58,279 nt of DNA from Helicobacteraceae bacterium (GTDB lineage Bacteria; Campylobacterota; Campylobacteria; Campylobacterales; Sulfurimonadaceae), in contig CANMJR010000015.1 of NCBI GenBank assembly GCA_947498025.1, forward strand, positions 1-58,279, read 5' to 3'. Numbering within the stretch: position 1 is the first letter of the stretch; each line of letters opens with the position of its first letter. The translations under genes and the position numbers were made by a program. Below the pieces are notes generated by a model. It ran no database searches. It was not told where the DNA came from and was given only the letters and a program-made list of their open reading frames with translations. Shown here one piece after another: positions 779 through 20,191 of this stretch.

Positions 779-805
779 TAAAGTTATTTTTTTAGCTGAC
801 GATAT
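779..805 (+). promoter_or_regulatory. Sigma-28 (FliA) promoter of flagellin 2
   Basis: TAAAGTTA at 779-786, an 11-nt spacer, then GACGATAT at 798-805. This fits the FliA consensus TAAAGTTT-N11-GCCGATAA closely in sequence and exactly in spacing. Start codon is about 70 nt downstream, leaving a leader with a small hairpin (AAGAG/CTCTT near 840-862) and an AAGGAT ribosome site. Confidence 0.85.
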
Positions 806-877
806 AATTGATGTATCAGCAAGGAAGCTGAGCAAAATTAAAGAGGGCGCAAGGCTCTTACCCGAAAAGGATTTAAA

Positions 878-1696: not shown

Positions 1697-1718
1697 TAAC
1701 AATCGTTAGAGCTTCGTA

Positions 1719-1779
1719 ATTCTGAATTTAACTCAGAATCTATTTAATAGATGTCAAAAAGTTTATTCTTTGGCATCTA
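1719..1779 (+). terminator. Hairpins after flagellin 2
   Basis: Two inverted repeats follow the stop codon: a 7-bp AT-rich stem (1719-1725 with 1733-1739) and an 11-bp stem with one G-T pair (1748-1758 with 1769-1779). Neither has a long T-tract, so termination is plausible but not certain. Confidence 0.45.
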
Positions 1780-1810
1780 CCTCCTTCAAATAACTTTCAT
1801 TCTTAATTTT

Positions 1811-1824
1811 GGAACACTATTTGC
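1811..1824 (+). promoter_or_regulatory. Sigma-54 (RpoN) promoter of flagellin 3
   Basis: TTGGAACACTATTTGCT carries GG at 1811-1812 and GC at 1823-1824 with exactly 10 nt between them, the diagnostic -24/-12 spacing of RpoN promoters. It lies about 37 nt upstream of the start codon. No good sigma-28 match is seen here, so flagellin 3 is probably in the RpoN/FlgR class. Confidence 0.75.
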
Positions 1825-1861
1825 TTTAGTTTGACAAATAGTCAATCGTAAGGAATCTGTT

Positions 1862-2680
1862 ATGGGATTTAGAATAAATACAAATGTGGGTGCAATGAAT
1901 GCACACATGCAAGCTACGATGAATAATGTTGGACTTGATAAAAGTCTTAATGCATTGAGCTCAGGTCTAAGAATAAATAAGGCGGCTGATGATTCGGCAG
2001 GTTTGGCAATCGCAAATAAACTTTCAGCACAGGCGAATGGCTTAGGGCAAGCCATAAAAAATGCAAATGATGGTATTGGTATGATTCAAACGACGGATGG
2101 AGCGTTGCAAGAGTATGGAAATATCTTGCAAAGAATTCGTACTCTTGCAATTCAAGGTGCCAATGATACTCAAGATAGTGGTTCTCGAAGCTATATTTCT
2201 AAAGAGATGATAAGACTTCAAAGTGAACTGAACCATATCGCTTCTGAGACTAAATTCAACGGTAAACAACTTTTAAGTACTACCGGAACATATACATTTC
2301 AAGTTGGCGCATTTAGAGGCGATACTACAATTACAACAGTAAGTAGTATGAAAACTACAGCTTTACTTGCAAATCAACTAGCTACTTTCTCAACTCAGGC
2401 TAGTTCTGCAACCATTATATCTATGATGGATAGTTCACTTAAATTAGTTGATGGATTAAGAGCAACATTGGGTGCTGCACAAAACCAACTAGAGTCAACC
2501 ATAAGAAATATATCAATCACTCAAGTGAATGTTTCAGCCGCAGAATCAAATATCAGGGATGTTGACTTTGCAGCGGAGAGTGCAAGTTTTGCAAAACATA
2601 ATATTCTGGCACAATCAGGCTCTTATGCTATGAGCCAAGCAAATGCTGTTCAGCAGAATGTTCTCAAGCTGCTCCAATAA
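1862..2680 (+). CDS. Flagellin 3
   Basis: A third 272-residue flagellin with the same D0/D1 ends as flagellin 2 (identical for about the first 50 residues). It differs through the middle, for example QTTDGALQEYGN and SGSRSYISKEM in place of [12 protein letters not shown] and [11 protein letters not shown]. An AAGGA ribosome site lies 8 nt before the ATG. The sigma-54 promoter and greater divergence suggest a FlaB-type subunit, perhaps forming the hook-proximal part of the filament; that role is inference from Campylobacter FlaA/FlaB. Confidence 0.96.
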   Translation: MGFRINTNVGAMNAHMQATMNNVGLDKSLNALSSGLRINKAADDSAGLAIANKLSAQANGLGQAIKNANDGIGMIQTTDGALQEYGNILQRIRTLAIQGANDTQDSGSRSYISKEMIRLQSELNHIASETKFNGKQLLSTTGTYTFQVGAFRGDTTITTVSSMKTTALLANQLATFSTQASSATIISMMDSSLKLVDGLRATLGAAQNQLESTIRNISITQVNVSAAESNIRDVDFAAESASFAKHNILAQSGSYAMSQANAVQQNVLKLLQ

Positions 2681-2701
2681 TATAAACTTCTTACATAACT
2701 A

Positions 2702-2803
2702 AGATTGCCCCCATCGGTTCTTTGCCATAAGAACCGTAACCAAACATCTTGCAATGGTGTTTGGAGGTGATGGCTGCCTTCTCCTCTGAGGTCAAAGCAA
2801 TCT
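2702..2803. ncRNA. Branched structured element between convergent genes
   Basis: This 102-nt segment lies between flagellin 3 and the convergent maf gene. An outer 7-bp stem (AGATTGC 2702-2708 with GCAATCT 2797-2803) encloses a CCATC/GATGG stem (2711-2715 with 2769-2773), which encloses two hairpins: GGTTCTT/AAGAACC (2716-2722, 2729-2735) and CCAAACA/TGTTTGG (2740-2746, 2758-2764). A short CCT/AGG hairpin (2777-2791) follows. A T-tract follows on the plus strand. It could be an independent small RNA, a structured flagellin 3'UTR or an elaborate terminator; I do not recognise the family. The strand is not settled. Confidence 0.45.
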
Positions 2804-4829: not shown

Positions 4830-4938
4830 GTAATACCCTCTATCTAGTTGTTTAGTTGAAGCAAAAATCATACCTAAAATAATTACAAAATATCACTCTT
4901 TAACCGATTTAGATACAATAAATGAAAAAGAAGTTTTA

Positions 4939-5997
4939 ATGAAAAGCATAGATAAAATCAGACTGAAATCCGGTTCAACAGTGCGGGAGGCGATGATAGC
5001 CATTGATGACGGCGCCATGAAAATAGCGGTAGTCGTGGATGAAGAGGGAAAGCTTGTCGGAATATTGACCGATGGAGATATTAGAAGAGGTCTGATTGAC
5101 GGCATGACGCTCAGCAGCTCCATAGAAAGAATCATACAGATTAATCCTATCGTCTGCTTCGTGAATGATTCTAAAGAGGATATTCTGGCAAAATCTTTAG
5201 GCAAAAAAATCTACCATGTGCCGGTTTTAGATGCTAACAACAGAGTTATCGGGATAGAAGATATAGACAGCCTTTTAGCATCGCAGACCAAAATCAACAA
5301 GGTGGTTCTCATGGTGGGCGGTCTTGGCTCGCGTCTGAGACCACTGACGGAAGAGACTCCAAAACCGATGCTTAAAGTCGGGAATAAGCCGATATTAGAG
5401 ACTATTATAAATAATTTTAAGCAGTATGGATTCAAAGATATTATTCTGAGTGTGAACTACAAGGCAGATATTGTAAAAGAGTATTTTGGCGACGGCAAAA
5501 AGTTTGGCGTAAATATAGAGTATATTCATGAAGCCAAACGCATGGGAACAGCAGGAGCTTTGAGCCTCATGCGAGGCAAGTTTGATGAACCGTTTTTTGT
5601 CATGAACGGCGATTTGCTCACCAATGTTAATTTTGAACATTTCTTGAATTTTCATAAAGAGAACGGTTCACATGCTACTATGGCGGTGCGGGAGTATGAG
5701 TATCAAGTTCCTTTTGGTGTGATAAATCAGGAAGAGGGAAGGATTACCTCAATTATTGAAAAACCGATGCAGAGATTTTATGTCAATGCCGGCATCTATA
5801 TTTTAAATCCGGAGGTTATAGAGATGATAGAAGATAATACTTTTTATGACATGCCGACACTTTTTGATGATTTAATCAAAAGCGACAAAGCACCAATCTC
5901 TTTTCCTGTACATGAGTATTGGTTGGATATCGGTCAGATGAATGAGCTAAAACAGGCAAGAGACGAGTATGCGAGCGTGTTTGAGGAATCCCTGTGA
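4939..5997 (+). CDS. ptmE: CBS-domain sugar-1-phosphate nucleotidyltransferase (PtmE-like)
   Basis: A 352-residue protein with a CBS pair at about residues 1-115 and an NTP-transferase domain from residue 121. The signature GGLGSRLRP (127-135) is followed by PKPML and by the metal-site Asp in FFVMNGDLL. This order is that of Campylobacter jejuni PtmE, a glucosamine-1-phosphate guanylyltransferase that supplies GDP-sugar for legionaminic-acid synthesis. The CBS pair may sense nucleotide, as inference. It is first in a plus-strand operon; the next gene overlaps its stop by 4 bp. Confidence 0.82.
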   Translation: MKSIDKIRLKSGSTVREAMIAIDDGAMKIAVVVDEEGKLVGILTDGDIRRGLIDGMTLSSSIERIIQINPIVCFVNDSKEDILAKSLGKKIYHVPVLDANNRVIGIEDIDSLLASQTKINKVVLMVGGLGSRLRPLTEETPKPMLKVGNKPILETIINNFKQYGFKDIILSVNYKADIVKEYFGDGKKFGVNIEYIHEAKRMGTAGALSLMRGKFDEPFFVMNGDLLTNVNFEHFLNFHKENGSHATMAVREYEYQVPFGVINQEEGRITSIIEKPMQRFYVNAGIYILNPEVIEMIEDNTFYDMPTLFDDLIKSDKAPISFPVHEYWLDIGQMNELKQARDEYASVFEESL

Positions 5998-6830
5998 AAA
6001 AAAAAGTAAATTTTGATATCTGTACATTTTGTAATCATAAGTGTACATTCTGCTCAAACTCAGACCCAAGAACCATAAAAGAGCAGACGACTTTGGAAGA
6101 TTTCAAAAAAGTGATGGCGAATGTTGCCCGCCATATGGAAATTACAGAGTTAGGACTCTCGGCGAAGGGCGAAGTGCTTGTAAACAGAGAGTTTGCAAAG
6201 ATTGTGGAGTCCTCCAAAAAAGAGTTCAACATTCCCTATGTCTATTTTAGTACAAACGGGGCATTGCTTACTCAAAAGAAGGCTGCAGAACTTTTAGAAG
6301 CCGGCATTAACAGTATCAAATTCTCTATCAATGCACTTGATGCGTCAACTTATAAAAGCGTTCATTTAGTAGATGATTTTGAGTGTGTCATACAAAATTT
6401 CAGAGATTTATTGCAGCTTAAATCTGAGAAATATCCAAACCTGAGAATTTTTATTTCTTCTGTGATTGACATCGATAAAGAGAGTCTGACAAAAAAGTTT
6501 GAAGCAATTTTCGGTGCAGATTTTGCACTTGTTAACGGCGTATCTGTTTACGCTTTGGGATATACGCCGAAGTTTGAAGTTACATCCCAAAAAACGGTAA
6601 CCAAAAAATGTAAAATTCCTTTTGATGAACTTTACATTAACTCGGACGGAACGCTCGGGCTTTGCTGCAAAGACTACTTTGATTCAATCAATTTCGGCTC
6701 TTTGATAGCGCATGATTTTTTAGATATTTATAATTCCAAAGAGTTTGCAGCGGTTAGAGAGATGCATGAAAAAAGTGAATTTCCAGAGAACCATTTGTGT
6801 AAAAACTGCCTTTTATATGGAGAAGCGTAA
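5994..6830 (+). CDS. Radical SAM/SPASM protein 1
   Basis: A 278-residue radical SAM enzyme. The cluster-binding CX3CX2C is at C13, C17 and C20, unusually close to the N-terminus. A C-terminal SPASM-like region has paired cysteines in LGLCCKDY and HLCKNC for further Fe-S cluster(s). The start is a GTG overlapping the ptmE stop, with GAGG 8 nt upstream. The stop overlaps the next ATG (TAATG). Translational coupling to ptmE and the CMP-sugar synthetase points to a role in nonulosonate or flagellin modification, but the substrate cannot be read from sequence. Confidence 0.85.
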   Translation: MKKKVNFDICTFCNHKCTFCSNSDPRTIKEQTTLEDFKKVMANVARHMEITELGLSAKGEVLVNREFAKIVESSKKEFNIPYVYFSTNGALLTQKKAAELLEAGINSIKFSINALDASTYKSVHLVDDFECVIQNFRDLLQLKSEKYPNLRIFISSVIDIDKESLTKKFEAIFGADFALVNGVSVYALGYTPKFEVTSQKTVTKKCKIPFDELYINSDGTLGLCCKDYFDSINFGSLIAHDFLDIYNSKEFAAVREMHEKSEFPENHLCKNCLLYGEA

Positions 6831-7528
6831 TGTTTAACGGTAAAAAGATTTTAGCAATTATTTTGGCTCGCGGCGGAAGCAAAAGATTGCCGAATAAAAA
6901 TATACTTCCTCTCGGCGGAAAGCCTCTGATAGCATGGAGCATCGATGAGGCAAAGAAGTCCAAATACATAGACACCGTAATGGTTACGACCGACTCTTTG
7001 GAGATTTACGATGTGGCTTTAAAACATGGCGCAGAGTTGCCGTTTTTGCGACCTGCGGAACTGGCTCAAGATGAGACAAAATCCATAGATGTAATCCTTC
7101 ATGCACTCGATTTTTATAAAGATGAGAAGTTTGATGATGTGATTATATTTCAGCCCACTTCACCGTTGCGGGATGTGGATGACATTGACGGGGCTATTGA
7201 GTTCTTTTACGCCAAAAATGCGACATCGGTCGTAGGAGTTTGCGAGGTAGAACACTCGCCATTGTGGAGCAATACTCTGGATGAGAATTTTAGCATGGAG
7301 AACTTTTTGGATGATAAATACAACAATTTCCGCTCTCAGGATTTGCCGGTTTACTACAGAATAAACGGTGCTTTTTACATGTCAAAGATAGACTCTGTCA
7401 TAGAGAAGAAGAGTTTTTTCATAAAGCAGAATATTTACGCGTATGTTATGAGCCAAGAGCATTCTGCCGATATAGATACAAAGTTAGATTTTATAATAGC
7501 TGAAGCACTACTAAATGCTACACACTAA
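6830..7528 (+). CDS. legF: CMP-nonulosonate cytidylyltransferase (LegF/NeuA-like)
   Basis: A 232-residue acylneuraminate cytidylyltransferase. It activates the nonulosonic acid with CTP to a CMP-sugar, the donor for Maf transferases. The nucleotide-binding ILARGGSKRLPNKN is at residues 10-23, followed by PLGGKPLIAW and FQPTSPLR. LegF is preferred over PseF because legB, legC, legH, legI and legG are all nearby and no pseudaminic-acid pathway gene is seen. The start overlaps the previous stop. Confidence 0.82.
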   Translation: MFNGKKILAIILARGGSKRLPNKNILPLGGKPLIAWSIDEAKKSKYIDTVMVTTDSLEIYDVALKHGAELPFLRPAELAQDETKSIDVILHALDFYKDEKFDDVIIFQPTSPLRDVDDIDGAIEFFYAKNATSVVGVCEVEHSPLWSNTLDENFSMENFLDDKYNNFRSQDLPVYYRINGAFYMSKIDSVIEKKSFFIKQNIYAYVMSQEHSADIDTKLDFIIAEALLNATH

Positions 7529-7670: not shown

Positions 7671-8699
7671 ATGTCAGGACAACACATAGAAAAGAAAGAG
7701 GAAGAGGTAAACTACAACGCCAATGAAATAGTCTTCTCAAAAAATTGGGAGAGTTTTAAGGGCGAGGAGTATGCCGAGTACAGAGCAAACTGGAGTAAAT
7801 ATCCCAAAGAGAGATTTGTTTCTCACTTTCCGCTTAACTTAGATATTGAGACGACAGACCTCTGTAACCTCAAATGCCCGATGTGTGCGAGAACTATGAA
7901 GGATGCGGACAAAGAGCATCATGTGGCAAAAAGCCGTTACATAGACAAAGAGGCCTACATGAATATCATAGACCAAGCGGTGGAGCATGGCGTAAAGGCT
8001 ATCAAACTTCAATATTTGGGAGAGCCGCTTCTTCATAAAGATGTTGCATTTCAAGTGGAGTATGCGAAGCAAAAAGGGGTACTTGATGTGATGTTTAACA
8101 CAAATGCCGTATTGCTTACGCCTGATTTATCGCTCAAACTTCTTGAAGCAGGTCTGGATAAACTTTTTATCTCTTTTGATGCAGTCAATCCTAAACTCTA
8201 TGCGCAACAACGCGTCGGAACGACCATTGGAGTTGTTATAGATAATATTTATGAGTTTATAAAACTCCGTGATATGTTCTACCCAAAAACGCATATCCGC
8301 CTCTCCATGGTTATGTATGACGACCCAATATGGCGCCGTCAGTTTGATGCTATGAAAGTGATGTGGGAAGGGCTTGTTGACTCGCTTGGATATGGAATAT
8401 TTAACGAAAGAAATCCAGATAAAAGACATGAATACGCTCCGGTGGAAGGCTTTGCATGCGAGCAACTTTTTCAGAGAATGTTCTTAAAATGCAATGGAAA
8501 TGTAACGGTTTGCTGTGTGGATGATTCGGATGAGTACATTGTCGGGAACTGGAAAGAGCAAAAACTCATAGACATCTGGAACGCACCGAAATATAGAGAG
8601 ATAAGAGATGCACATGCCAACGGTGACTACTACAAAATTCCGATGTGCCGAAAATGTTTCTTGCCTGATTTGTATAAAAAAACTTATTTGGATAAATAA
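7671..8699 (+). CDS. Radical SAM/SPASM protein 2
   Basis: A 342-residue radical SAM enzyme. CX3CX2C lies at C65, C69 and C72 (TTDLCNLKCPMCA), preceded by a ~55-residue N-terminal extension. The C-terminal SPASM region has cysteines in FACEQLFQ, FLKCNGNVTVCC and MCRKCFLPD. An AAAAGGA ribosome site precedes the ATG. It shares architecture, but little sequence, with radical SAM protein 1 just upstream and is separated from legF only by the palindrome cluster. The substrate is unknown; a role in modifying a nonulosonate or the flagellin is inferred from position. Confidence 0.85.
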   Translation: MSGQHIEKKEEEVNYNANEIVFSKNWESFKGEEYAEYRANWSKYPKERFVSHFPLNLDIETTDLCNLKCPMCARTMKDADKEHHVAKSRYIDKEAYMNIIDQAVEHGVKAIKLQYLGEPLLHKDVAFQVEYAKQKGVLDVMFNTNAVLLTPDLSLKLLEAGLDKLFISFDAVNPKLYAQQRVGTTIGVVIDNIYEFIKLRDMFYPKTHIRLSMVMYDDPIWRRQFDAMKVMWEGLVDSLGYGIFNERNPDKRHEYAPVEGFACEQLFQRMFLKCNGNVTVCCVDDSDEYIVGNWKEQKLIDIWNAPKYREIRDAHANGDYYKIPMCRKCFLPDLYKKTYLDK

Positions 8700-8868: not shown

Positions 8869-9969
8869 ATGGAATATCCGACACTGTTTATAGCTGCATT
8901 ATTTGATTTAAGCAATGCAATGGCTCCGTATATACTTTTTGGTCTAATTTTTGCAGGGATTCTGCATGAAGTAGTTCCTGCGAGTATCGTTACAAAGCAT
9001 TTGGGCAAAGAGAATATATTGTCAGTCGTCAAAGCGACACTTTTTGGTATTCCTCTTCCTGTCTGTTCATGCGGAGTGATTCCTCTGGCTACAAGCATCA
9101 AAAAAAGTGGTGCGAGCAAAGGAGCTACCCTCTCTTTTTTGATATCCACCCCGATAACAGGAGTGGATTCAATCTTGGCGACATACGGAATATTCGGTTG
9201 GATTTTTACACTTTACCGTGTCTTTAGTTCTATAATTATTGCTATGGCGGCAGGAGTGTTGACAAATGTTTTTGATAAAGAGGATATTGCAGAAAAGACC
9301 CAAAGTATGAGTTGGGTAAAACAGGAGACTAAAAGCTGCTGTGTTTCATCTTCTGCACCAAAAGGAAATTTGTCATTTCACTCCGGCACATGCGAAAGCC
9401 AAACTGTTCAAAAAAAGTTTTCTCTCTCAAAAGCGCTTAAATATGGTTTTATAACTTTGCTTGGCGATATTGCAAAACCCCTGCTTTGGGGTTTGATGTT
9501 GGGTGCTCTTATTACGACTGTAATCCCTCAAAATTTGAGTGCCATTTTAATTGAGTACTCTTGGCTTTCCTATATCATCGTGATTGCGATTGCGGTACCT
9601 ATGTATATCTGTGCCACTGCATCTCTGCCGATAGCGGCAGCACTTATGATGTCGGGAGTGAGTGCGGGAGCCGCTTTTGTTTTTTTAAGTGCAGGACCGG
9701 CTACAAATACCGTGACAATAGGAGTAGTGAAAAAGATGCTTGGTACCAGAGCTCTTTACATCTATTTGGGAAGTATTATTATCGGCAGTATCTTGTTTGG
9801 GTTGGCTTTAGATTATATTTTTAAAATATCAGAAATTAATCCAAAATCACTTCTTCATTTGCATGAAGAGGCAGGAATACTCTCTATTTTCAGCAGTGCG
9901 GTTTTATGGAGTTTAGTTCTTTACTCTATTATGAAACCATTGTTTTCTAGGCTCTCACAAACCTCTTAA
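8869..9969 (+). CDS. SO_0444-type Cu/Zn efflux permease (ArsP/DUF318 family)
   Basis: A 366-residue inner-membrane permease with about 8-10 hydrophobic segments in two halves. The family motif PLPVCSCGVIPL (C66, C68) sits in the first half. A soluble loop at about residues 140-185 holds further possible metal ligands (C157, C158, H171, C175). The Cys-x-Cys-Gly form fits the SO_0444 Cu/Zn export group better than ArsP. No metalloregulator is visible beside it. Its 3' end overlaps the convergent epimerase gene by 23 bp. Confidence 0.8.
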   Translation: MEYPTLFIAALFDLSNAMAPYILFGLIFAGILHEVVPASIVTKHLGKENILSVVKATLFGIPLPVCSCGVIPLATSIKKSGASKGATLSFLISTPITGVDSILATYGIFGWIFTLYRVFSSIIIAMAAGVLTNVFDKEDIAEKTQSMSWVKQETKSCCVSSSAPKGNLSFHSGTCESQTVQKKFSLSKALKYGFITLLGDIAKPLLWGLMLGALITTVIPQNLSAILIEYSWLSYIIVIAIAVPMYICATASLPIAAALMMSGVSAGAAFVFLSAGPATNTVTIGVVKKMLGTRALYIYLGSIIIGSILFGLALDYIFKISEINPKSLLHLHEEAGILSIFSSAVLWSLVLYSIMKPLFSRLSQTS

Positions 9970-11119
9970 ACATAAGTCTCTCTTTCGTGAGAGAGGCATC
10001 TTCTATAATCTCTCTGAGTATTTTTGTGCTCTTTCCGAAGCCGAAAATACCTCTGTTTGCTTCACATGCCGTTTTAATCTCTTCGTAATTTTGAAGTATG
10101 TAGCCCAGTTTTTCTTCTATCTCTTTTTTGTCCAAGTTGACATCCAAAACATTGTTTGCTTTTTTTCTGTTGCCCTGTCTGTCGCCGATGTTGAGCGTTG
10201 GGGTTTTGTACAAACATGTCTCCAAAAGTCCGCTGCTTGAGTTGCCTGCTACGATTGTGTTAAAATTTTTGTAGAGGCTCAGCATAGTGAGCGTGCCTAG
10301 ATTTTTTACAAGTGCGATGTTCTTTGCAAATTGCGTGTTCTCTAAAAACTCTATGATTTCTTCAGAACCTGTGTCGTTATTTGGGTAGGTTAAAATAGTG
10401 TTTAAATTAAACTCACTAAGTATCTCTAGCAGATTTTTGAAATCCAAATAGTTTGCATGTGGAGTTTTATATTGGGTTGCATGGTAGGTCACGATGAGTG
10501 TTTTTTGGGTGAAATCGAAGAGCGGAAATTTTGCCTCAATCTCTCCTATTGTCGGAAGCAGATTTAATCTGTCATAGTCATAAGTAGAGATTCCCACATT
10601 TTTAACTCGCCACTCCTCTTCGCCGAGCTGCTCTACAACGCTCTTTGAATTCTCTGAGAGTGTGAGATGGAGGTGCGCCATTTTGGTTATTACATGTCGG
10701 ATATTTGAGTCCAGATAAGCGTTGTCGGTTACATCTCCTCCAGCGTAGTGGATAAGCGGTGTATTGTGTAAAAACACGGCAGAGGCAAAAGCAAAACTCT
10801 CCGGTCTGTCACCCAAAACAAAAGCGTAGTCATAGCTCTTTTCTTTGAGAATATCGACCGATTTTTGATGGATGAGGGCAAAAGAGTCTATGTGTGCATT
10901 TGGAATATTGGGTATGGGAATGTTTATCAGATTGACGCTCAAGTTATGTTTGCACATACTCTCTTCTATCTCTGCGATTGTATTCCATGGCGGGAGCAGA
11001 TGGGTGCCGGAGATGATGAAGTCGATTGCATGGTGCGTATTCAGCTCTATTAAAAAAGGCAGAAGATACCCGAACTCTGCACGGTTTCCGCTAAAAAAAA
11101 GGATTCTATTTCTCTTCAT
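9947..11119 (-). CDS. Divergent NeuC/LegG-like UDP-sugar 2-epimerase
   Basis: About 390 residues with the GT-B fold of hydrolysing UDP-GlcNAc 2-epimerases: N-terminal FFSGNRAEFGYL, LGDRPESF, and C-terminal GNSSSGLLETCL followed by NIGDRQGNRK. Where the LegG protein in this operon has HGGESTEG and DEAIRH, this one has AGGDVTDN and DSNIRH, so two acidic positions usually linked to catalysis have changed. Activity or substrate may differ. The open frame extends to 11197, but the ATG at 11119 starts the fold and overlaps the methyltransferase gene by 14 bp. It is last in the nine-gene operon. Confidence 0.78.
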   Translation of the reverse strand: MKRNRILFFSGNRAEFGYLLPFLIELNTHHAIDFIISGTHLLPPWNTIAEIEESMCKHNLSVNLINIPIPNIPNAHIDSFALIHQKSVDILKEKSYDYAFVLGDRPESFAFASAVFLHNTPLIHYAGGDVTDNAYLDSNIRHVITKMAHLHLTLSENSKSVVEQLGEEEWRVKNVGISTYDYDRLNLLPTIGEIEAKFPLFDFTQKTLIVTYHATQYKTPHANYLDFKNLLEILSEFNLNTILTYPNNDTGSEEIIEFLENTQFAKNIALVKNLGTLTMLSLYKNFNTIVAGNSSSGLLETCLYKTPTLNIGDRQGNRKKANNVLDVNLDKKEIEEKLGYILQNYEEIKTACEANRGIFGFGKSTKILREIIEDASLTKERLMFKRFVRA

Positions 11120-11738
11120 AGCCGCTTCTTGTTGCCCAGTCGTGCTTATATAAATAGAGTGTAAAATCGTTTGGAAGGTAGTCTTGGCGTACAACACTAA
11201 AAGGTGTGAGTTTTTTTGTCATCTCCATCACTTTTGAGAGTTCATAACCGTAAATATGTTCTGCTAAAGAGTTTTCGTATGTTTTGTTTATCATGTTCGT
11301 TGCAACGCCGAAGTTGCAAAGTTCAAACATTTTAGCAAGCACTCTCTCCAAAAGTTCATCGTTTTTTTCAACCTTTATATTGTGAATGCCGGAGCCAAAA
11401 ACATAGTCATGTTTGTCTATCTTTTCACTCAATATATCAAGTTTTAAAATATTGAGCACAGGATGTCTTTCTTTTGCCTGTGCAACAATTTTTGACGAGA
11501 TGTCAACGCCAGTATATCTGACATTTAATCCCAGAGTAGTGTTTAAAAAATCAAAAAAATCTCCAAATCCACAACCGACATCAAGTACGGATTTGTTCTC
11601 TAGCGAAGCAATCTCGCTAAAGATATGAAACCGAATCTGCTGCGTTCTTTTGCTTCCCCAATCGAGGGATTTGATGCTGTAGCCGTTTAGCCGGGTTTTT
11701 TCATTAAAAAAGTTTTCTATAGTCTGTAAATCATCCAT
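11106..11738 (-). CDS. Class I SAM-dependent methyltransferase
   Basis: A 210-residue Rossmann-fold methyltransferase. Motif I is SVLDVGCGFGDF, followed by GVDISSKIV, the ribose-binding acidic strand. The frame is open to a GTG at 11747, but the ATG at 11738 has AGGTG 6 nt upstream and is preferred. Within a legionaminic-acid operon it may O- or N-methylate the sugar; N-methylated acetimidoyl legionaminic acid is known from Campylobacter flagellin. The exact substrate is inference. Confidence 0.75.
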   Translation of the reverse strand: MDDLQTIENFFNEKTRLNGYSIKSLDWGSKRTQQIRFHIFSEIASLENKSVLDVGCGFGDFFDFLNTTLGLNVRYTGVDISSKIVAQAKERHPVLNILKLDILSEKIDKHDYVFGSGIHNIKVEKNDELLERVLAKMFELCNFGVATNMINKTYENSLAEHIYGYELSKVMEMTKKLTPFSVVRQDYLPNDFTLYLYKHDWATRSGYEEK

Positions 11739-11747
11739 GTTTTGCAC

Positions 11748-12437
11748 CTATATGTAGTTGTGAGCCAAATTCTTGCCGACATTAAAAAGCAAGTCCAAAG
11801 AGGATAAACCCTCTGTAAATGAGCTGTTTTTATACTGCTCATACGGCATTTGTTTAAAATCCTGATAAAAGAGTTTAATACTATTTTGTTCAAACTCTTC
11901 TTCACTTTGATAGCTTTTTGCTCCCACTCCTGAGAGATAATTTTTTGAATTACTGCATTTTAGCAGCTCAAAAATCAAATCACTCTTTTTACTCTCTTTG
12001 TTATAGAGTAAATCCGATTGCAAAATGATTTGCGTCTCTATCTTAAAGAGTTTACAACAAAGCGTCATGGAGTCTATGAGAACATCCGACAGAAAGTTAT
12101 ACTCTTTTGTATAGAGAGGCTCAACCTCCTCTAAAATTTCTCCAAAATAAGGGTGTCTATTGTAGTTTTGCATTAAAAATCTGAGATGTTTTTTTTGCCA
12201 TCTTTTGTCTGCGATACGCATCTCTTTTATGGTTTTGTCAAAGTAATTTTTCTTCTCAACAGCAATTGTGAGCATGTGAACATTCAAATTTTTATCTAAA
12301 AAGATGTTTCTGTTTTGATACCCGCCGTCCAAAAACTGCACCCCGTCCATGACTATGAATTTTTTGCTTTTCTGTATCTTGTTTAATAACCCCTGCCATG
12401 GGAGATAAGATGGTTGATGGATGGAGGTTAAGTTCAT
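11748..12437 (-). CDS. WbqC-like family protein
   Basis: A 229-residue protein of the WbqC family (PF08889). It opens with SIHQPSYLPWQGLLNK and VMDGVQFLDGGYQNRN, the hallmark His-Gln-Pro and Asp/Asn-Arg motifs. Members occur in O-antigen and glycan operons and have been proposed to be sugar-modifying enzymes; the biochemistry is poorly defined. Its ATG overlaps the stop of maf2 by 4 bp and the next gene follows at once, so it is translationally coupled within the operon. Confidence 0.82.
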   Translation of the reverse strand: MNLTSIHQPSYLPWQGLLNKIQKSKKFIVMDGVQFLDGGYQNRNIFLDKNLNVHMLTIAVEKKNYFDKTIKEMRIADKRWQKKHLRFLMQNYNRHPYFGEILEEVEPLYTKEYNFLSDVLIDSMTLCCKLFKIETQIILQSDLLYNKESKKSDLIFELLKCSNSKNYLSGVGAKSYQSEEEFEQNSIKLFYQDFKQMPYEQYKNSSFTEGLSSLDLLFNVGKNLAHNYI

Positions 12438-14478: not shown

Positions 14479-16299
14479 CTATCCTTTGCTTATCTCTTTT
14501 AAGAGCATAAAACTCTCCGCATGTTTACAACCCGAAGAAGCACCTCTAAAAGTTGCCAATGCTCTGATATTTGTCGTGCTTCTCGGAAAAGGGGGTTCTT
14601 GAATCTCGCTTTTATATATTTTCATTATATCTATTTTTCTATCGATATATTTGTCTATATTTACAAACATGTTAGGTATAAAAATATCATCTTTAAAGAC
14701 CGGAGCAAACTCCGTTTCGCTCAGAGTCTCCATCATGTAGAGCTTTTCTATAAAGGGGTACCGAAAAGATTTTGTACAGCTGTATGTGGCATCAAAGATT
14801 ACTCTGTGGTCGCTATGCACATCGCCTCTGAAGGGCAGATAGATTATAGTTGGTTCTACATCTTTGATAACCTGCGAAATTTTTTGCACAAGCTCACTCA
14901 TACTGTACTCGTCCACCCGCATGGTATCGAGCATTAAATTTGTAACCGAATCAAATTGATAACTCTTTGAAACCTCTTTAATCTCCTCGTCGCGAACGGC
15001 TGAGAACTCTCTGTTGTTGTTGACATGTGTGCAGATGAGCCAGTGCGTTTCATCTCCTGCATCTTTATATTTTAGGAGTGTACCGCCGCATCCCAGCGTT
15101 TCATCGTCGGGATGGACTGAAACAACCAAAACCCTGTTTATTTTTGGCGTAAGGTTGTAGAATGATTTTTTGAGCAGGTTTGTAAGCTCTGTTGATTTGA
15201 GAAGCTCTTTTATCTTATAGCTTGTATCTCTTCCCTGATAGGGATTTACATTTTCTTTGAGAATACTTTTAAATTCGGGTGTGTAGATAGAGTGAATTGC
15301 ATGGAGTATCTCCTTTTTTGAAGCACTCACATCTATTATGCTTTTTGCTCTCTCCCGCCCCTTTTGTCTATCCCCGATATTGATAGTGGCTATGTTAAAA
15401 CTCGGTGCTTCTATAATTCCGCTTGAGCTGTTTCCGACAACTCCGTCCATAAATTGCAGGGCACTCAAATATCTGAGCTGTCCTAAAGAGGTGTGGCATG
15501 TGGCGCGGAACGGGTGCTCTGAAACATAGGCGTCAATCATGCTGTTTATTGTTTTTCCGTTCGTGTCTGCATTTGCTTTTGTAAAAATAAGAATCGTATC
15601 TTCGAGCAAATCAAGCGCATCCAATATCTCTTGAAACGGCTCTGCGGAGTTTTGAGACTCGAGCGTAGTCGGATGAAAAGTTATCAGCAGGTTCTTTTTG
15701 CCCAACTTAAAACCGATAGCTTCCTCAAAGACGTCTTTTGATAGCAGCTTCGTATTTTTGATGTTTTCAACACCGAGCGAGCCGACATTATGCACAGTTT
15801 GCGGATTCTCTCCGAGCTGAATGATTCTCTCTCTGTAGATTCTAGTCGCACAAAAATGGATGTGGGACATTTTGGTTATAGAGTGCCGGATAGCTTCATC
15901 CTGCGCCCCCTCCGTACTCTCGCCGCCATGGATATGCGCTATGGGAATATTGAGCAGCATGGCGGAGATGGCGACTGAAAGCATCTCATACCTGTCGCCG
16001 AGTATTACGACAATATCGGGCTGAAGCTCTACAAACGCGGCACTCATATCTGCTTGGAGTTTTGCCATAGACTCAGAGATGACGATAGGTGTGTCTTTTG
16101 ACAAATCCATACCAATCTTCTTGTCGATTTTAAACTTTTTTTCTATCTCTTCATAAGTATTTCCAAACTCCTGTGAGAGGTGCGTTCCGGTCACAATAAG
16201 CTGAAGCGTTAAATCTTTGTCACTCTCTATCTGTTCTATCAAAGGCTCTAATAACCCATAATCCGCTCTTGTTGAGGTTATTACGCATATTTTTCTCAT
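14479..16299 (-). CDS. legG: LegG-PIG-L fusion: hydrolysing UDP-sugar 2-epimerase + deacetylase
   Basis: A 606-residue two-domain protein. Residues 1 to about 375 are a NeuC/LegG epimerase: STRADYGLLEPL, GDRYEML (101-107), HGGESTEGAQDE, ITFHPTT and GNSSSGIIEAPSF. LegG hydrolyses the UDP-2,4-diacetamido sugar to 2,4-diacetamido-2,4,6-trideoxymannose. Residues about 388-606 are a PIG-L/LmbE N-deacetylase with the zinc motif HPDDE (396-400) and a second His motif HSDH (495-498). LegG proteins normally stop at about 370-385 residues. The fusion suggests that a step of the pathway removes an acetyl group, perhaps to re-acylate it. The start overlaps the legI stop by 4 bp. Confidence 0.88.
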   Translation of the reverse strand: MRKICVITSTRADYGLLEPLIEQIESDKDLTLQLIVTGTHLSQEFGNTYEEIEKKFKIDKKIGMDLSKDTPIVISESMAKLQADMSAAFVELQPDIVVILGDRYEMLSVAISAMLLNIPIAHIHGGESTEGAQDEAIRHSITKMSHIHFCATRIYRERIIQLGENPQTVHNVGSLGVENIKNTKLLSKDVFEEAIGFKLGKKNLLITFHPTTLESQNSAEPFQEILDALDLLEDTILIFTKANADTNGKTINSMIDAYVSEHPFRATCHTSLGQLRYLSALQFMDGVVGNSSSGIIEAPSFNIATINIGDRQKGRERAKSIIDVSASKKEILHAIHSIYTPEFKSILKENVNPYQGRDTSYKIKELLKSTELTNLLKKSFYNLTPKINRVLVVSVHPDDETLGCGGTLLKYKDAGDETHWLICTHVNNNREFSAVRDEEIKEVSKSYQFDSVTNLMLDTMRVDEYSMSELVQKISQVIKDVEPTIIYLPFRGDVHSDHRVIFDATYSCTKSFRYPFIEKLYMMETLSETEFAPVFKDDIFIPNMFVNIDKYIDRKIDIMKIYKSEIQEPPFPRSTTNIRALATFRGASSGCKHAESFMLLKEISKG

Positions 16300-17294
16300 A
16301 TCAGCTCATCTTCTCTATAATCTTTTGAAGCAACTTTACCGATTATCTCATCCCATTTCATTGGACTTATTCCGGTTCCCGGTCTTTTTACCGTTATATT
16401 TTCTTCGCTGAAAATCTCGCCCTTTTTTATCTCTTTTTTTGCGACAATTGATTTTCTTGAGATATTTATATTTTTGCTCTCGCTCTTACTTGGAGTTTTT
16501 ATGCCGCTGCCTAGAGCTTTTTCTATATTTCGGATTGCTTTGACCATGGCTATCAGTTCATGCGGTTCGAGAGAGGCTTTATGGTCGGGACCTTCCATGG
16601 TGTTGTCGAGGGTAAAATGTTTTTCGATGCACTCCGCACCGAGTGCAACCGCGGCAATATCGACCTCTATTCCCAAAGTATGGTCGCTGTATCCGCATGC
16701 CACGCCTAGAGTATCTCTTATGGTTACCATTGCGTTAAGATTCACATCCTCCATCGGGGTCGGGTACTCCGTGTTTGCATGAAGCACGGTAATATTCTCT
16801 TTCTTTGTGCCAGAGTAGGTTAGTATAGCCAGAGCGTCCGCAATCTCATCCATATTTGCCATACCTGTTGATAAAATCACTTTTTTATTCAAAGCGCCGA
16901 TTTTTCGTAAATAAGGGAGGTTTGTTATTTCTCCGCTTGGAATTTTAAATATCTTTAATCCCAAATTATGAAGCAAATCCACACTGTCCAAATCAAAGGG
17001 GGTGGAGAGAAACATTATATTTTTTTCTTCGCAGTAGGCCATCAGTTCATGGTGTGTTGAAACGCCCAGTTCCAGCTTTTTTATCATCTCAAACTGGCTC
17101 TCATTCGCATCTGTTGTACTTTTTTGGTACTCGGCTTTCTGCGCTGTTTTGCTCACAAGATTTTCTGTTTTAAAAGTCTGAAATTTTACGGCATCCGCAC
17201 CGGCAAGAGCTGCTACATCGATGAGTTTTTTGGCTAACTCGGTGCTGCCGTTATGGTTCACTCCTGCCTCTGCAATGATAAACACTCTTTTCAT
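16296..17294 (-). CDS. legI: N,N'-diacetyllegionaminate synthase (NeuB family)
   Basis: A 332-residue NeuB-type synthase that condenses the 2,4-diacetamido-trideoxymannose with phosphoenolpyruvate. The TIM-barrel part starts FIIAEAGVNHNGS with GADAVKFQTF, IPSGEITN and GYSDHTLG. The C-terminal SAF (antifreeze-like) domain is residues ~270-332, beginning RKSIVAKKEIKKGE. Legionaminate rather than sialate or pseudaminate synthase is favoured by the adjacent legB, legC, legH and legG. It overlaps legH at the start and legG at the end. Confidence 0.87.
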   Translation of the reverse strand: MKRVFIIAEAGVNHNGSTELAKKLIDVAALAGADAVKFQTFKTENLVSKTAQKAEYQKSTTDANESQFEMIKKLELGVSTHHELMAYCEEKNIMFLSTPFDLDSVDLLHNLGLKIFKIPSGEITNLPYLRKIGALNKKVILSTGMANMDEIADALAILTYSGTKKENITVLHANTEYPTPMEDVNLNAMVTIRDTLGVACGYSDHTLGIEVDIAAVALGAECIEKHFTLDNTMEGPDHKASLEPHELIAMVKAIRNIEKALGSGIKTPSKSESKNINISRKSIVAKKEIKKGEIFSEENITVKRPGTGISPMKWDEIIGKVASKDYREDELI

Positions 17295-17863
17295 TTCAGA
17301 ACACTCCCCGCTTTTATAAATCCATGCGCCGTAGCATACTCCCGCATCACCGCGCCGCTTCCAAAAAAACTGTTCTCTTTTACGGTTGCTCCGCCGTTTA
17401 TAATCGCACCCGTGGAGATATGAACGAAATCTTCAATAACCGCGTCATGTTCAATCAAAGCCTTAGAATTTATAATACAGTTTTTGCCGACTTTGGCATG
17501 TGGATTTATAAGAACATGGTGCATAATCACGCTTCCTTCATCCACAAATGCATGTTTTGAGACATACGCCAAAGGTGAGATAATAGTCGGCATGTGGAAA
17601 TTCAACTCTTTTAAAAGTTGAAAAAGTTTTACTCTTATTTCGTTCGATTTTATATGCCCGACAGTGATGATTGCATGTGAAAATTTTTGTCTTAAATCTT
17701 TCAAATCTTCGTCGCAACCGATGATTTTATAGCCCAAAACTTCGCTGCCTATAAGCTCTCTTTTATCGATTACTCCGGCAATTTTGTATCTTTTTTCCTG
17801 TTCAATCACATCAATAACGCTTTTGCAGTGACCGCCGCCGCCGATGAGTAAAATCTCTTCCAT
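17291..17863 (-). CDS. legH: N-acetyltransferase, LegH/PglD/NeuD family
   Basis: A 190-residue acetyltransferase. An N-terminal Rossmann-like sugar-nucleotide domain (LLIGGGGHCKSVIDVI) is followed by a left-handed beta-helix of hexapeptide repeats from about residue 90. The catalytic His is probably within IEHDAVIEDFVHIS. It is expected to acetylate the 4-amino group made by LegC. Its start overlaps the legC stop (TAATG) and its end overlaps legI. Confidence 0.82.
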   Translation of the reverse strand: MEEILLIGGGGHCKSVIDVIEQEKRYKIAGVIDKRELIGSEVLGYKIIGCDEDLKDLRQKFSHAIITVGHIKSNEIRVKLFQLLKELNFHMPTIISPLAYVSKHAFVDEGSVIMHHVLINPHAKVGKNCIINSKALIEHDAVIEDFVHISTGAIINGGATVKENSFFGSGAVMREYATAHGFIKAGSVLK

Positions 17864-19002
17864 TATATCCTCACACTGCTAGGGATATTCACAACTTTCT
17901 CTTCTAAATATTTTGAGTTACTTAAATCAAAATATTGACATGTTTTAAACATCTCAAGCTCATTCATAAGCCGCCAGATTGGGCGTGTCATAACGCCTTT
18001 TTTGTTCGTAAACTTCAAAAATGCATCTCTCTCTTTTTTATCTTTGAGCAGAACTGCCTGAAGCCAGTAGTTTGACTGTGCATCTTTTGGCTCTTCTATA
18101 AATTTTATATCGGCAGATTTTCTGAAAAACTCCGCATATTCACATGATAGAGCTCTTTTATTTTCTAAAAAACTATCCAGTTGTTCAAGTTGAGCAACAA
18201 GCAGTGCGGCGTTTAGATTCGGCATGCGGTAGTTGTAACCGATTGCATCATGAACAAACTCATAGGCATGTGGAATTTTTGCGGTTGTCGTGAGATGTTT
18301 TGCTCTTTTTGCCAAGAGTTCATCATCGGTAACTATCACTCCGCCGCCGCCTGAAGTGATGATTTTATTGCCGTTAAAACTAAAAGCCCCAAGCTTGCCG
18401 AAAGTGCCTGTGTGCTTCTTTTTATAGTAGCTACCAAGGCTCTCCGCCGCGTCTTCAATCAGTTCGATATGCCAAGTGTCGCAGATATTTTTGATTTGCT
18501 CAATGCGGCATGGATGACCGAAAGTGTGCATCGGCACACACGCTTTTATGGTTTTGCCTGTCGTTTTATTGATACATTTATTATCTCTAATTTCGCCATG
18601 CATTTTCAAAAAATTCTCTAAAGAAGCAGGGCTTAACCCCATCGTATCCAAATCCACATCCACAAAAACCGGTTTTGCACCGCAGTAGCTTATGGCGTTG
18701 CATGTGGCTATAAAAGTGAGCGGCTGCGTTATCACTTCATCGCCATGTTCCACACCTGCCAAAATGAGTGCAATGTGCAATGCTGCCGTGCCGTTTACCG
18801 TAGCAACTGCATATTTTGAGCCTACTTTGAGGGCAAACTCTTTTTCAAAACTATCCACAAATTTCCCCACACTTGAGACAAAAGTAGAGTCGATGCAGTC
18901 GTTGAGATACTTCTTTTCATTCCCAAAAAAACGGGGTTCATGCAGGGGAATAAACTCTTTGGTGTTAAAAGTTTTTTGAATGAAATCTACTATTTTTTGC
19001 AT
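17863..19002 (-). CDS. legC: Sugar aminotransferase LegC (DegT/DnrJ/EryC1)
   Basis: About 379 residues. A PLP-dependent aminotransferase that puts the 4-amino group on the 4-keto sugar from LegB. The internal-aldimine Lys is in AFSFNGNKIITSGGGG; EDAAESLGSYY and NYRMPNLNAAL are family motifs. I start at the ATG at 19002, one base after the legB stop; the frame is open to 19041 but that would lie inside legB. The N-terminus HEPRFFGNEKKYL matches the LegC type. Confidence 0.86.
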   Translation of the reverse strand: MQKIVDFIQKTFNTKEFIPLHEPRFFGNEKKYLNDCIDSTFVSSVGKFVDSFEKEFALKVGSKYAVATVNGTAALHIALILAGVEHGDEVITQPLTFIATCNAISYCGAKPVFVDVDLDTMGLSPASLENFLKMHGEIRDNKCINKTTGKTIKACVPMHTFGHPCRIEQIKNICDTWHIELIEDAAESLGSYYKKKHTGTFGKLGAFSFNGNKIITSGGGGVIVTDDELLAKRAKHLTTTAKIPHAYEFVHDAIGYNYRMPNLNAALLVAQLEQLDSFLENKRALSCEYAEFFRKSADIKFIEEPKDAQSNYWLQAVLLKDKKERDAFLKFTNKKGVMTRPIWRLMNELEMFKTCQYFDLSNSKYLEEKVVNIPSSVRI

Positions 19003-19003
19003 C

Positions 19004-20191
19004 TTACATCTTTCCATCAAGATATTTGCCGGTTTCCACATGCCCGAAGTTCGGAATTAGAGCGAAAAATTCTCGTACAATATCCTCTTTTGTCCATTCA
19101 AGGATTCGTTTATAGTAATGCATCGTATCTTGAAAATCATTGAGCTTCTCTTCATTAAAAACAGCTTCGTTTTTTATAACTCCGATGGACTCAAATCTGT
19201 CCATATCCAAAACCTCTTTTTCTGTAAAAAACTCTTCAAAATCTTTTTCGCCTGTTGTATCACTCGAAGTAAACAAACAAGGCCATTTTTTTTCATCGGG
19301 CAGTGTGTGACAAAGCTCTCTCGCTTCATCCTCGTCTTTGCACAAATAAGGCTCATATCCCAAATCTTTTAAATACTGAACTGCTATGTCGGCAAATGAG
19401 ATAAGGTGCAGGCTATCGTCGAGTTTTGGAAAAAATATATCACGGTTTTGTCCAAAAATGCAGCTCATCAGGCATAACTCTCCGCTCTCCTGAGGGGTTA
19501 TAAAGTAGCGTTTTATATCGTTTGGTGCGACAATCGGCTGTCTTTTTTGAATGCGCTGATTGAAGCTATGCAGAAGCGAGCCGTCACTAAAGGCGACATT
19601 GGCAAATCTGGCGGTTGAGATGTTAATTTGCAAAGAGCGACGCATCAAAAACATCTCCATGATTCTTTTACTTGCACCCATCATGTTTACGGGGTTTGCG
19701 GCTTTGTCCGTGCTTACACAAAAATATTTTTTAGTGCCATTGTTTATGGAGTGTTGCAGAGTTTTATCTGTGTTGAAAATATTTACATCAATCATCCGCA
19801 TCAGAGTAAAAGCATCTTTTTCGCTTCTTACATGTTTAAGTGCCGAGAGGTTTAAGACAAAGTCATATTTGCCGTCACCTTTTATAAAAGCGTCATATTC
19901 AACACTTCCAACATCAAGTGCGAAAGTGGCAAAATCTCCGTCAATATAACCGATTGAGCTTCGTATGTCACGCACCAATTCGACCATGTTGTTCTCAGAA
20001 ATATCAACAACATGGAGCTTTTTCGGGTTTCGTTTAAATATCTCTTTAGTAACTGCCTGCCCGATAGTTCCTGCACCGCCGATGACTAAAAAAGTGGATG
20101 AAGAGACAACCGAGAAAAGCTCTTTTTCCTTTGTTTTCATATCATCATAAAAAAGCTCTCTGTTTCTACCAATTAAATGTAATATATTCAC
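19004..20191 (-). CDS. legB: NAD-dependent UDP/GDP-GlcNAc 4,6-dehydratase LegB
   Basis: A 395-residue extended short-chain dehydrogenase. The N-terminal NAD motif is VIGGAGTIGQAV. The active-site stretch STDKAANPVNMMGASKR has Met where classical members have Tyr (the S-M-K type of FlaA1-like dehydratases). It makes the 4-keto-6-deoxy sugar that starts the legionaminic-acid route. The start codon is GTG with AGAGAG 5 nt upstream. It is the first gene of the nine-gene minus-strand operon and is divergent from fliD. Confidence 0.86.
   Translation of the reverse strand: MNILHLIGRNRELFYDDMKTKEKELFSVVSSSTFLVIGGAGTIGQAVTKEIFKRNPKKLHVVDISENNMVELVRDIRSSIGYIDGDFATFALDVGSVEYDAFIKGDGKYDFVLNLSALKHVRSEKDAFTLMRMIDVNIFNTDKTLQHSINNGTKKYFCVSTDKAANPVNMMGASKRIMEMFLMRRSLQINISTARFANVAFSDGSLLHSFNQRIQKRQPIVAPNDIKRYFITPQESGELCLMSCIFGQNRDIFFPKLDDSLHLISFADIAVQYLKDLGYEPYLCKDEDEARELCHTLPDEKKWPCLFTSSDTTGEKDFEEFFTEKEVLDMDRFESIGVIKNEAVFNEEKLNDFQDTMHYYKRILEWTKEDIVREFFALIPNFGHVETGKYLDGKM

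What the first reader, a model, noticed from the sequence alone, without database searches (positions are those of the whole stretch)
14479..16299. LegG fused to a PIG-L deacetylase inside a legionaminic-acid operon
One 606-residue frame joins a full hydrolysing 2-epimerase (GDRYEML, HGGESTEG, GNSSSGIIEA) to a complete PIG-L domain with zinc motifs HPDDE and HSDH. Standard LegG/NeuC proteins end near residue 380. Fusion suggests the deacetylase acts on the LegG substrate or product, giving a free amine that could be re-acylated, amidinated or methylated. That would be a new branch of nonulosonate chemistry on flagellin. The fusion is seen directly; the chemistry is inference.
Basis: partly seen in the sequence, partly recalled or inferred. 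Interest (0 to 1): 0.72.

Follow-up and report, generated by a model that had tools for sequence, protein, structure and literature searches.

The report
Fused enzyme swapping a sugar's tag
A Sulfurimonas flagellin-sugar operon fuses a sugar epimerase to an enzyme that should strip an acetyl group, and relatives of that acetyl-stripping enzyme sit beside varied acyl-adding genes in similar clusters of many bacteria, which suggests a previously unassigned way of making non-standard legionaminic acids.

Summary
Observation confirmed: one 606-aa frame (minus strand, 14479-16299) joins a complete LegG/NeuC epimerase to a complete PIG-L deacetylase with intact motifs. Three other genomes of the genus carry it at 88-93% identity, so it is no sequencing error.

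The fusion is a local form of a wider module. PIG-L relatives occur as separate genes in legionaminic-type clusters of many phyla. An acyl-installing gene (formyltransferase, GNAT, ATP-grasp or WbqC) lies within three genes in 30 of 33 Campylobacterota loci and 70 of 79 loci from named records, against 6 of 40 control LegG loci. Formyltransferases beside PIG-L form a different clade from those in the LegH slot. On 46 shared loci only the epimerase tree tracks acyl type.

Best reading: PIG-L removes the GlcNAc-derived C2 N-acetyl (future N5) and a partner re-acylates it; in the window probably WbqC, whose predicted fold best matches BshC, putative ligase after the deacetylase BshB in bacillithiol synthesis.

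The chemistry is inferred. N5-variant legionaminic acids are known; my searches found no paper assigning PIG-L to them.

The parts
14479..16299 (-). LegG-PIG-L fusion gene, 606 aa
15148..16299 (-). LegG (hydrolysing 2-epimerase) domain, residues 1-384
   Evidence: TIGR03568 residues 2-367, 471.6 bits; 5zlr/5xvs match residues 1-383
15919..15930 (-). HGGE, residues 124-127; Glu127 is Asp in most epimerases that accompany GNAT, ATP-grasp or WbqC elsewhere
14482..15138 (-). PIG-L deacetylase domain, residues 388-606
   Evidence: PF02585 83.9 bits; alignment A1
15100..15114 (-). HPDDE zinc/catalytic motif, residues 396-400
   Evidence: role of the motif recalled
14806..14817 (-). HSDH zinc motif, residues 495-498
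   Evidence: role of the motif recalled
11748..12437 (-). WbqC-family protein, predicted amide-forming partner
   Evidence: PF08889 203.9 bits; AF2 pLDDT 94.1; best match is BshC 4wbd, Z 13.6
11106..11747 (-). SAM-dependent methyltransferase next to WbqC
9947..11197 (-). second, divergent NeuC-type epimerase (AGGD in place of HGGE); start codon uncertain
   Evidence: TIGR03568 265.3 bits
12434..14476 (-). Maf-type flagellin glycosyltransferase
   Evidence: MptE-like and Maf_flag10_N
16296..17294 (-). LegI (NeuB-type synthase)
17291..17863 (-). LegH-slot acetyltransferase (NeuD/PglB/VioB family)
17863..19041 (-). LegC aminotransferase (TIGR04181, 570.1 bits)
19004..20191 (-). LegB-type 4,6-dehydratase
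   Evidence: Polysacc_synt_2; the name LegB is by context
4939..5997 (+). PtmE-type nucleotidyltransferase with CBS domain
   Evidence: name by context
6830..7528 (+). LegF-type CMP-sugar synthetase
   Evidence: CTP_transf_3; name by context

Best explanation
The protein is a bifunctional enzyme of an N-acyl-exchange branch of the legionaminic acid pathway. Its PIG-L half removes the N-acetyl group that the sugar inherits from GlcNAc (C2 nitrogen, which becomes N5 of legionaminic acid). Its LegG half carries out the neighbouring hydrolysing 2-epimerisation. The free amine is then given a different acyl group by a cluster-specific installer. In the window this is most likely the WbqC-family protein (11748-12437), an amide-forming enzyme with a BshC-like fold, probably followed by methylation by the adjacent methyltransferase (11106-11747). 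The expected product is a legionaminic acid with a non-acetyl, possibly N-methylated, acyl group at N5 and acetyl at N7, placed on flagellin by the Maf enzymes. Shown here: the domains, motifs, conservation of the fusion, gene association, the two formyltransferase clades, the tree test and the predicted WbqC fold. Inferred: the reaction, its position (N5), its order relative to LegG, the partner and the identity of the acyl group.
For: (1) Both units are complete; HPDDE is intact in 32 of 33 PIG-L domains compared (one HYDDE) and HSDH in 32 of 33 (one HTDH). (2) An acyl-installing gene lies within three genes of PIG-L in 30 of 33 Campylobacterota PIG-L loci against 6 of 40 control LegG loci with no PIG-L in the fetched stretch (Fisher 2.7e-11); immediately adjacent in 14 of 33 against 0 of 40. 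In loci from named records, 70 of 79 (no matched control there). (3) Five of the six positive controls have the formyltransferase in the LegH slot with no LegH found (the sixth, L067, has one beside LegH), so the C4 amine made by LegC needs no deacetylase. (4) 68 formyltransferases split cleanly, support 1.0: one clade of 13 has all 6 LegH-slot members and no PIG-L-adjacent one, the rest include all 48 PIG-L-adjacent ones. (5) The PIG-L-adjacent formyltransferase type was found in 12 of 298 phylum genomes at E<=1e-60, and all 12 are among the 21 with the PIG-L relative; see the limits in the Against line. (6) On 46 loci sharing six genes, acyl type needs 3 changes on the epimerase tree but 13-15 on the PIG-L, LegI, LegC, LegF and PtmE trees, with shuffled means of 15.3-15.6. 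(7) Window WbqC: AF2 pLDDT 94.1, best VIA-align match BshC, Z 13.6 over 218 residues, next 7.9. (8) Outside the fused group, the best relatives in the genus search of both the window PIG-L (70%) and the window WbqC (50%) lie in one locus, G299:C199, as PIG-L, epimerase, WbqC (L061). (9) Products of the predicted kind are in print: 5-N-formyl-legionaminic acid with a formyltransferase gene next to legG in Halorubrum sp. PV6 (PMC6137143, section 15 read and passages), and Leg5GluNMe7Ac (PMC5207245, passage).
Against: No enzyme activity or glycan of this organism was measured. The window departs from the general pattern: in 34 of 35 readable GNAT, ATP-grasp or WbqC loci the epimerase has Asp at the HGGE site, whereas the fused LegG has Glu like formyl-type and ordinary LegG; the separate second epimerase has Asp but is not in the PIG-L-associated clade. 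PIG-L tree support for grouping the window with the WbqC loci is weak, 0.73 with L061 and 0.25 with L033, and a formyl locus (L062) joins next at 0.90. WbqC and BshC show no detectable sequence relation (HHalign probability 0.3%, no better than controls), and Foldseek gave nothing at E<=0.001. The epimerase-acyl link reflects essentially one deep split (41 tips, some present twice, support 1.0), not many independent events; on its larger own set (70 loci) the LegC tree also shows some signal, 16 changes against a shuffled mean of 23.6 and minimum of 17. Point 5 is weaker than its count: five of the 12 genomes supplied the alignment, five are partial matches (about 181-192 of 293 positions), and six of the 12 genes are not next to PIG-L, lying about 4-10 kb away or, once, on another contig. 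The HMMs were built from PIG-L loci, and controls were chosen by LegG similarity. One paper writes the Clostridium sugar as Leg5Ac7NMeGlu, which would put the unusual acyl at N7 (PMC2674064, passage).
Confidence: 0.7

Rival explanations
1. The PIG-L half acts at another point: on the C4 (future N7) acetyl, or late, on free or CMP-activated legionaminic acid.
For: The position was not measured, and one paper names the Clostridium sugar Leg5Ac7NMeGlu. In some PIG-L loci there is no NeuC, or only a low-scoring or distant one, and the NeuB-type gene nearest PIG-L mostly scores low (L034, L038, L040, L045, L059, L109).
Against: A C4 acyl change needs no deacetylase: five control loci simply have a formyltransferase in place of LegH. 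On the shared loci acyl type tracks the epimerase and not LegI or LegF, which points to a step at or before the epimerase.
Confidence: 0.18
2. The PIG-L half acts on an unrelated sugar, is structural, or is inactive in vivo, and flagellin carries plain Leg5Ac7Ac.
For: No biochemical data; fusions can be by-products of gene order. PIG-L frames are broken in two related loci (G308, G324).
Against: Zinc motifs are conserved, the fusion is kept in four genomes, and the PIG-L relatives sit in nonulosonate clusters: 73 of 79 loci from named records hold a LegI or NeuC hit.
Confidence: 0.08
3. The freed amine is amidinated, as in the acetamidino legionaminic acids of Campylobacter.
For: Acetamidino and N-methylacetimidoyl legionaminic acids occur in the same phylum (PMC3958885, passages).
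Against: No amidotransferase family among the nine island proteins scanned. For Campylobacter a figure legend names PtmG a CMP-Leg5Am7Ac acetamidino-synthase, and the word deacetylase does not occur in that paper's main text (PMC13317340, passages).
Confidence: 0.03
4. Sequencing or assembly error joining two genes.
For: The two domains are separate genes in nearly all other loci seen.
Against: Same joined frame, 88-93% identical, in G405, G352 and G322.
Confidence: 0.01

Closest known systems
Bacillithiol pathway, BshB (PIG-L deacetylase) followed by BshC (putative Cys ligase)
   Same: A deacetylase converts GlcNAc-malate to GlcN-malate, and a Rossmann-type enzyme is thought to add Cys to it (PMC4360819, passages). 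The window WbqC model best matches BshC (Z 13.6). A methyltransferase, NmbA, can then methylate bacillithiol (PMC12719100, abstract start and passages).
   Different: The sugar pathway, the acceptor and the acyl donor differ; the PIG-L domain scores 53 bits on the BshB1 model against a cut-off of 182.5; WbqC has no detectable sequence relation to BshC. BshC activity itself was reported in that 2015 review as never shown in vitro.
LegG of the Campylobacter GDP-legionaminic acid pathway
   Same: The N-terminal domain, its motifs and the surrounding LegB-C-H-I genes.
   Different: Ordinary LegG is a separate protein of about 385-405 aa with no deacetylase.
5-N-formyl-legionaminic acid genes of Halorubrum sp. 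PV6
   Same: legG next to a formyltransferase gene, and an N5-variant product inferred by mass spectrometry (PMC6137143, section 15 read and passages).
   Different: No deacetylase is described there; HrrPV6_1052 has no mention in the main text. Another haloarchaeon, Halorussus caseinilyticus, has formyltransferase, neuB, PIG-L and neuC together, but its PIG-L is only 31.7% identical to the window's.
Aeromonas pseudaminic flagellar glycosylation islands with 'deacetylase' genes
   Same: A gene annotated as deacetylase lies among nonulosonate genes (PMC7874193, passages).
   Different: Pseudaminic, not legionaminic; no specific role proposed in the passages seen; relation to this PIG-L not tested.

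Membership tests
NeuC/LegG hydrolysing 2-epimerase (TIGR03568) | Score over the curated cut-off | tested here: met
   471.6 bits against 235.9
NeuC/LegG hydrolysing 2-epimerase (TIGR03568) | Hydrolysing 2-epimerase activity on NDP-diNAcBac | not testable with these tools
   needs an assay
PIG-L deacetylase (PF02585) | Score over the gathering cut-off | tested here: met
   83.9 bits against 28.2
PIG-L deacetylase (PF02585) | HPDDE and HSDH motifs intact | tested here: met
PIG-L deacetylase (PF02585) | Zinc-dependent deacetylation | not testable with these tools
   needs an assay; the AF2 model of this half failed
BshB1 (TIGR04001) | Score over the equivalog cut-off | tested here: not met
   53 bits against 182.5
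WbqC family (PF08889), window 11748-12437 | Score over the gathering cut-off | tested here: met
   203.9 bits against 21.3
BshC (PF10079), for the WbqC protein | Sequence membership | tested here: not met
   no PF10079 hit at E<=0.001; HHalign against 7 BshC proteins, probability 0.3%
BshC (PF10079), for the WbqC protein | BshC-like core fold | tested here: inconclusive
   VIA-align Z 13.6, rmsd 3.3, 218 residues, well above rank 2 at 7.9; Foldseek no match at E<=0.001

The most novel reading that the evidence does not exclude
Legionaminic-type clusters across many bacterial phyla carry a plug-in N5 module: a generic PIG-L deacetylase, one of four interchangeable acyl installers (formyltransferase, GNAT, ATP-grasp ligase, WbqC), and an epimerase type matched to the acyl group; a haloarchaeal plasmid has a similar set with a more distant PIG-L. 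WbqC, a Pfam family for which I know of no assigned function, would be a BshC-like amide ligase for amino sugars. The Sulfurimonas fusion joins two consecutive steps of this module.
Probability: 0.55. Interest if true: 0.82.

Novelty: new variant of a known kind. Interest (0 to 1): 0.7.

Why it matters
Nonulosonic acids on bacterial surfaces vary in their N-acyl groups, and N5-variant legionaminic acids have been seen without an assigned route that I could find. If right, gene content next to PIG-L predicts the N5 group from sequence (formyl, or an amide-linked acid), gives a testable role to WbqC proteins, and supplies enzymes for making legionaminic acid analogues. The order of steps (acyl exchange at or before the epimerase) is directly testable.

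Tried and rejected
Sequencing error: rejected, three other genomes carry the joined frame. G161 first looked like a second fusion, but ORF calling shows two adjacent genes (L053); G124 (L052, epimerase-PIG-L, 624 aa) is another fusion. A weak full-length match in G372 (24% identity, one stop) resolved into separate NeuC- and PIG-L-labelled ORFs (L065) and was not pursued. Amidination: no family hit. Role of the window's second epimerase: not resolved; it is outside the PIG-L-associated clade. Fusion structure: the mixed alignment A4 gave LegG rows only 23-31% identity to the window, a misalignment (not used); A5 gave a mostly good LegG half but block pLDDT of about 20-50 for the PIG-L half, so domain arrangement is unknown. 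HHalign WbqC-BshC: negative. Sequence search of solved structures with WbqC: none at E<=1. VIA-align cannot show folds that Foldseek missed, so absence of other families means little. Plasmid search: 144 records matched PIG-L, only two were opened (the second had no annotation).

Literature searches and what was seen: 'legionaminic' + 'PIG-L' 1 paper (listing only); 'WbqC' + 'flagellin' 1 (listing only); 'legionaminic acid' + 'deacetylase' 8 (listing and abstract starts only); 'WbqC' 12 (listing only); 'legionaminic' + 'formyltransferase' 8 (four opened for passages); 'nonulosonic' + 'deacetylase' + 'flagellin' 3 (two opened for passages); for the Clostridium and bacillithiol papers, passages only; 'pseudaminic' + 'PIG-L' 0. 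I could not check HrrPV6_1052 or the gene list of the C. botulinum glycosylation island.

Rows dropped before counts: L066 had no centre; the 33 PIG-L loci (L033-L065) include three of the Sulfurimonas fusion (L054-L056), the other fusion (L052) and two divergent ones (L060, L065). Controls are defined by the fetched stretch; at least one control genome (G186) has a distant PIG-L elsewhere. In one search those six, the window and fused loci were left out, giving 91 loci, 46 with all six genes. In one search the six duplicates were left out; one formyl-locus epimerase and two without an acyl gene had a gap at the site. One WbqC fragment (G312) of 28 further WbqC matches was not fetched.

Full report
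What is there. The 606-aa frame lies on the minus strand at 14479-16299. Residues 2-367 are a NeuC/LegG hydrolysing 2-epimerase (471.6 bits, cut-off 235.9) whose best solved relatives are GDP/UDP-diNAcBac 2-epimerases. Residues 391-507 match PIG-L (83.9 bits), with HPDDE and HSDH intact. It sits downstream of LegI, LegH-slot, LegC and LegB-type genes and is followed by a Maf gene, a WbqC-family gene, a methyltransferase and a second, divergent NeuC-type gene. It is the only PIG-L hit in the genome.

The fusion is real but local. In 135 genomes of the genus, four carry it: the window's genome and G405, G352 and G322 at 93, 93 and 88% identity. A record title names the G405 contig (L107) as Sulfurimonas. 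In 298 genomes of the phylum, one further fusion joins PIG-L to a different epimerase (G124, L052). The fused LegG clade is sister (support 0.992) to ordinary LegG of four same-genus loci that lack PIG-L in the fetched stretch (L081, L089, L096, L098), so the PIG-L half was probably added later.

The wider module. I fetched loci around these and others and 40 control LegG loci, called ORFs, and labelled them with HMMs built from the PIG-L loci, with Pfam on representatives. Frequent orders are LegI-NeuC-formyltransferase-PIG-L (22 loci), ATP-grasp-HAD-NeuC-PIG-L (15), GNAT-NeuC-PIG-L and WbqC-NeuC-PIG-L (these tallies include loci present twice). An acyl-installing gene lies within three genes in 30 of 33 PIG-L loci and 6 of 40 controls (Fisher 2.7e-11); the misses are L056 (contig end), L060 and L065. 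Ten unlabelled neighbours were scanned by Pfam, seven of them from controls: none hit an acyltransferase family. This was a part only; one search lists 63 unlabelled control neighbours.

Across phyla. A scan of named genomes gave 80 loci whose titles span Campylobacterota, Bacteroidota, clostridia, bacilli, several proteobacterial groups, candidate phyla and an archaeal MAG. Of 79 with a PIG-L ORF, 73 hold a LegI or NeuC hit and 70 an acyl-installing gene within three genes: formyltransferase 39, ATP-grasp 14, WbqC 9, GNAT 8. No control set was made for these. A Halorussus plasmid has formyltransferase, neuB, PIG-L and neuC in one run, its PIG-L 31.7% identical to the window's.

Which nitrogen. 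In five controls a formyltransferase simply replaces LegH (L082, L083, L087, L088, L093). LegC makes a free C4 amine, so no deacetylase is needed there; this step rests on established knowledge of the pathway. The C2 nitrogen arrives already acetylated. The two kinds of formyltransferase are distinct clades with support 1.0: 0 of 48 PIG-L-adjacent sequences fall in the 13-member clade that holds all 6 LegH-slot ones. The PIG-L-adjacent kind was found in 12 of 298 genomes at E<=1e-60, all 12 with the PIG-L relative, but five of these supplied the alignment (A2), five are partial matches, and six are not next to PIG-L, one of them on another contig. N5 is therefore the best position, by inference.

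Order of steps. On 46 loci that share six genes, formyl versus other acyl type needs 3 changes on the epimerase tree against 13-15 on the other five trees (shuffled means 15.3-15.6). On larger sets, one per gene, the epimerase needs 5 (shuffled mean 27.1), LegC 16 (mean 23.6, minimum 17), and PIG-L, LegI, LegF, PtmE, LegH and LegB lie no lower than the shuffled minimum. The epimerase residue aligned with Glu127 is Glu in 34 of 34 readable formyl loci and Asp in 34 of 35 others after removing duplicates. PIG-L, although just as close, does not track. The simple reading is that the epimerase meets the exchanged acyl group. This rests on one main split in the epimerase tree, so cassette inheritance remains possible.

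The window's own partner. Window PIG-L and window WbqC both find their best relative outside the fused group, in the genus search, in one locus (G299:C199, L061; 70% and 50%). The WbqC model (pLDDT 94.1) matches BshC at Z 13.6, far above rank 2, though not by sequence or Foldseek E-value. In 27 further WbqC loci of the genus, by my reading, three have PIG-L next door, 17 have a LegC-like (DegT-type) aminotransferase within two genes, and seven have neither; this fits an enzyme that needs a free amine, but no background rate was computed. The window breaks one general rule: its fused LegG is of the Glu type, and its Asp-bearing epimerase is not from the module's clade. How the two epimerases divide the work is unresolved.

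Known chemistry. 5-N-formyl-legionaminic acid and its legG-formyltransferase neighbourhood are described in Halorubrum sp. PV6 (PMC6137143, section 15 and passages). A Clostridium flagellin carries Leg5GluNMe7Ac (PMC5207245, passage; PMC13317340, passage), although PMC2674064 writes Leg5Ac7NMeGlu (passage). BshB-BshC is the closest working parallel (PMC4360819, passages). My searches found no paper that assigns a PIG-L enzyme to legionaminic acid; the library holds open-licence papers only, and most hits were seen as listings.

Limits. Loci are not independent, HMMs were trained on the positive loci, controls were picked by LegG similarity, ORF calling was simple, and the named set is the top of a longer list. 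No activity was measured.

Noticed in passing
L054 4951-5835; L074 7024-7827; L101 7696-9399; L103 8478-9356: ORF6N or KilA-N domain genes (phage antirepressor-like by recall) sit inside legionaminic operons near LegI/LegG/LegC, including one next to the fusion gene in G405.
   Followed up: no
G308:C1:1846027-1846690 (L063); G324:C92:5916-6616 (L062): The separate PIG-L gene is broken by stops or frame changes beside an open formyltransferase and LegG; decay or phase variation is possible.
   Followed up: no
L196, L197, L198: A more distant PIG-L (about 30% identical) lies directly next to WbqC in other NeuB-containing clusters of the same genus, a second PIG-L-WbqC pairing.
   Followed up: partly
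L199-L222: 17 of the 24 other WbqC genes fetched here lie within two genes of a LegC-like (DegT-type) aminotransferase.
   Followed up: partly
L034, L038, L040, L045, L059, L109: PIG-L loci with no NeuC, or only a low-scoring or distant one, and mostly a low-scoring NeuB-type synthase near PIG-L; possibly a different nonulosonate.
   Followed up: no
L038 10296-11492: A MaoC-like domain joined to a GNAT domain sits next to PIG-L, which hints at a hydroxyacyl donor.
   Followed up: no
L082, L083, L087, L088, L093: A formyltransferase replaces LegH between LegC and LegI, predicting a 7-N-formyl legionaminic acid.
   Followed up: partly
window 5994-6830 and 7671-8699, + strand; 29-4871: Two radical-SAM-like proteins (named by eye, not scanned) lie in the glycosylation island beside PtmE and LegF; three flagellin-like ORFs (named by eye) and a second Maf gene lie at 29-4871.
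   Followed up: no
G000:C22:20103-20804: A second NeuB-family domain in a 633-aa open frame elsewhere in the genome.
   Followed up: no
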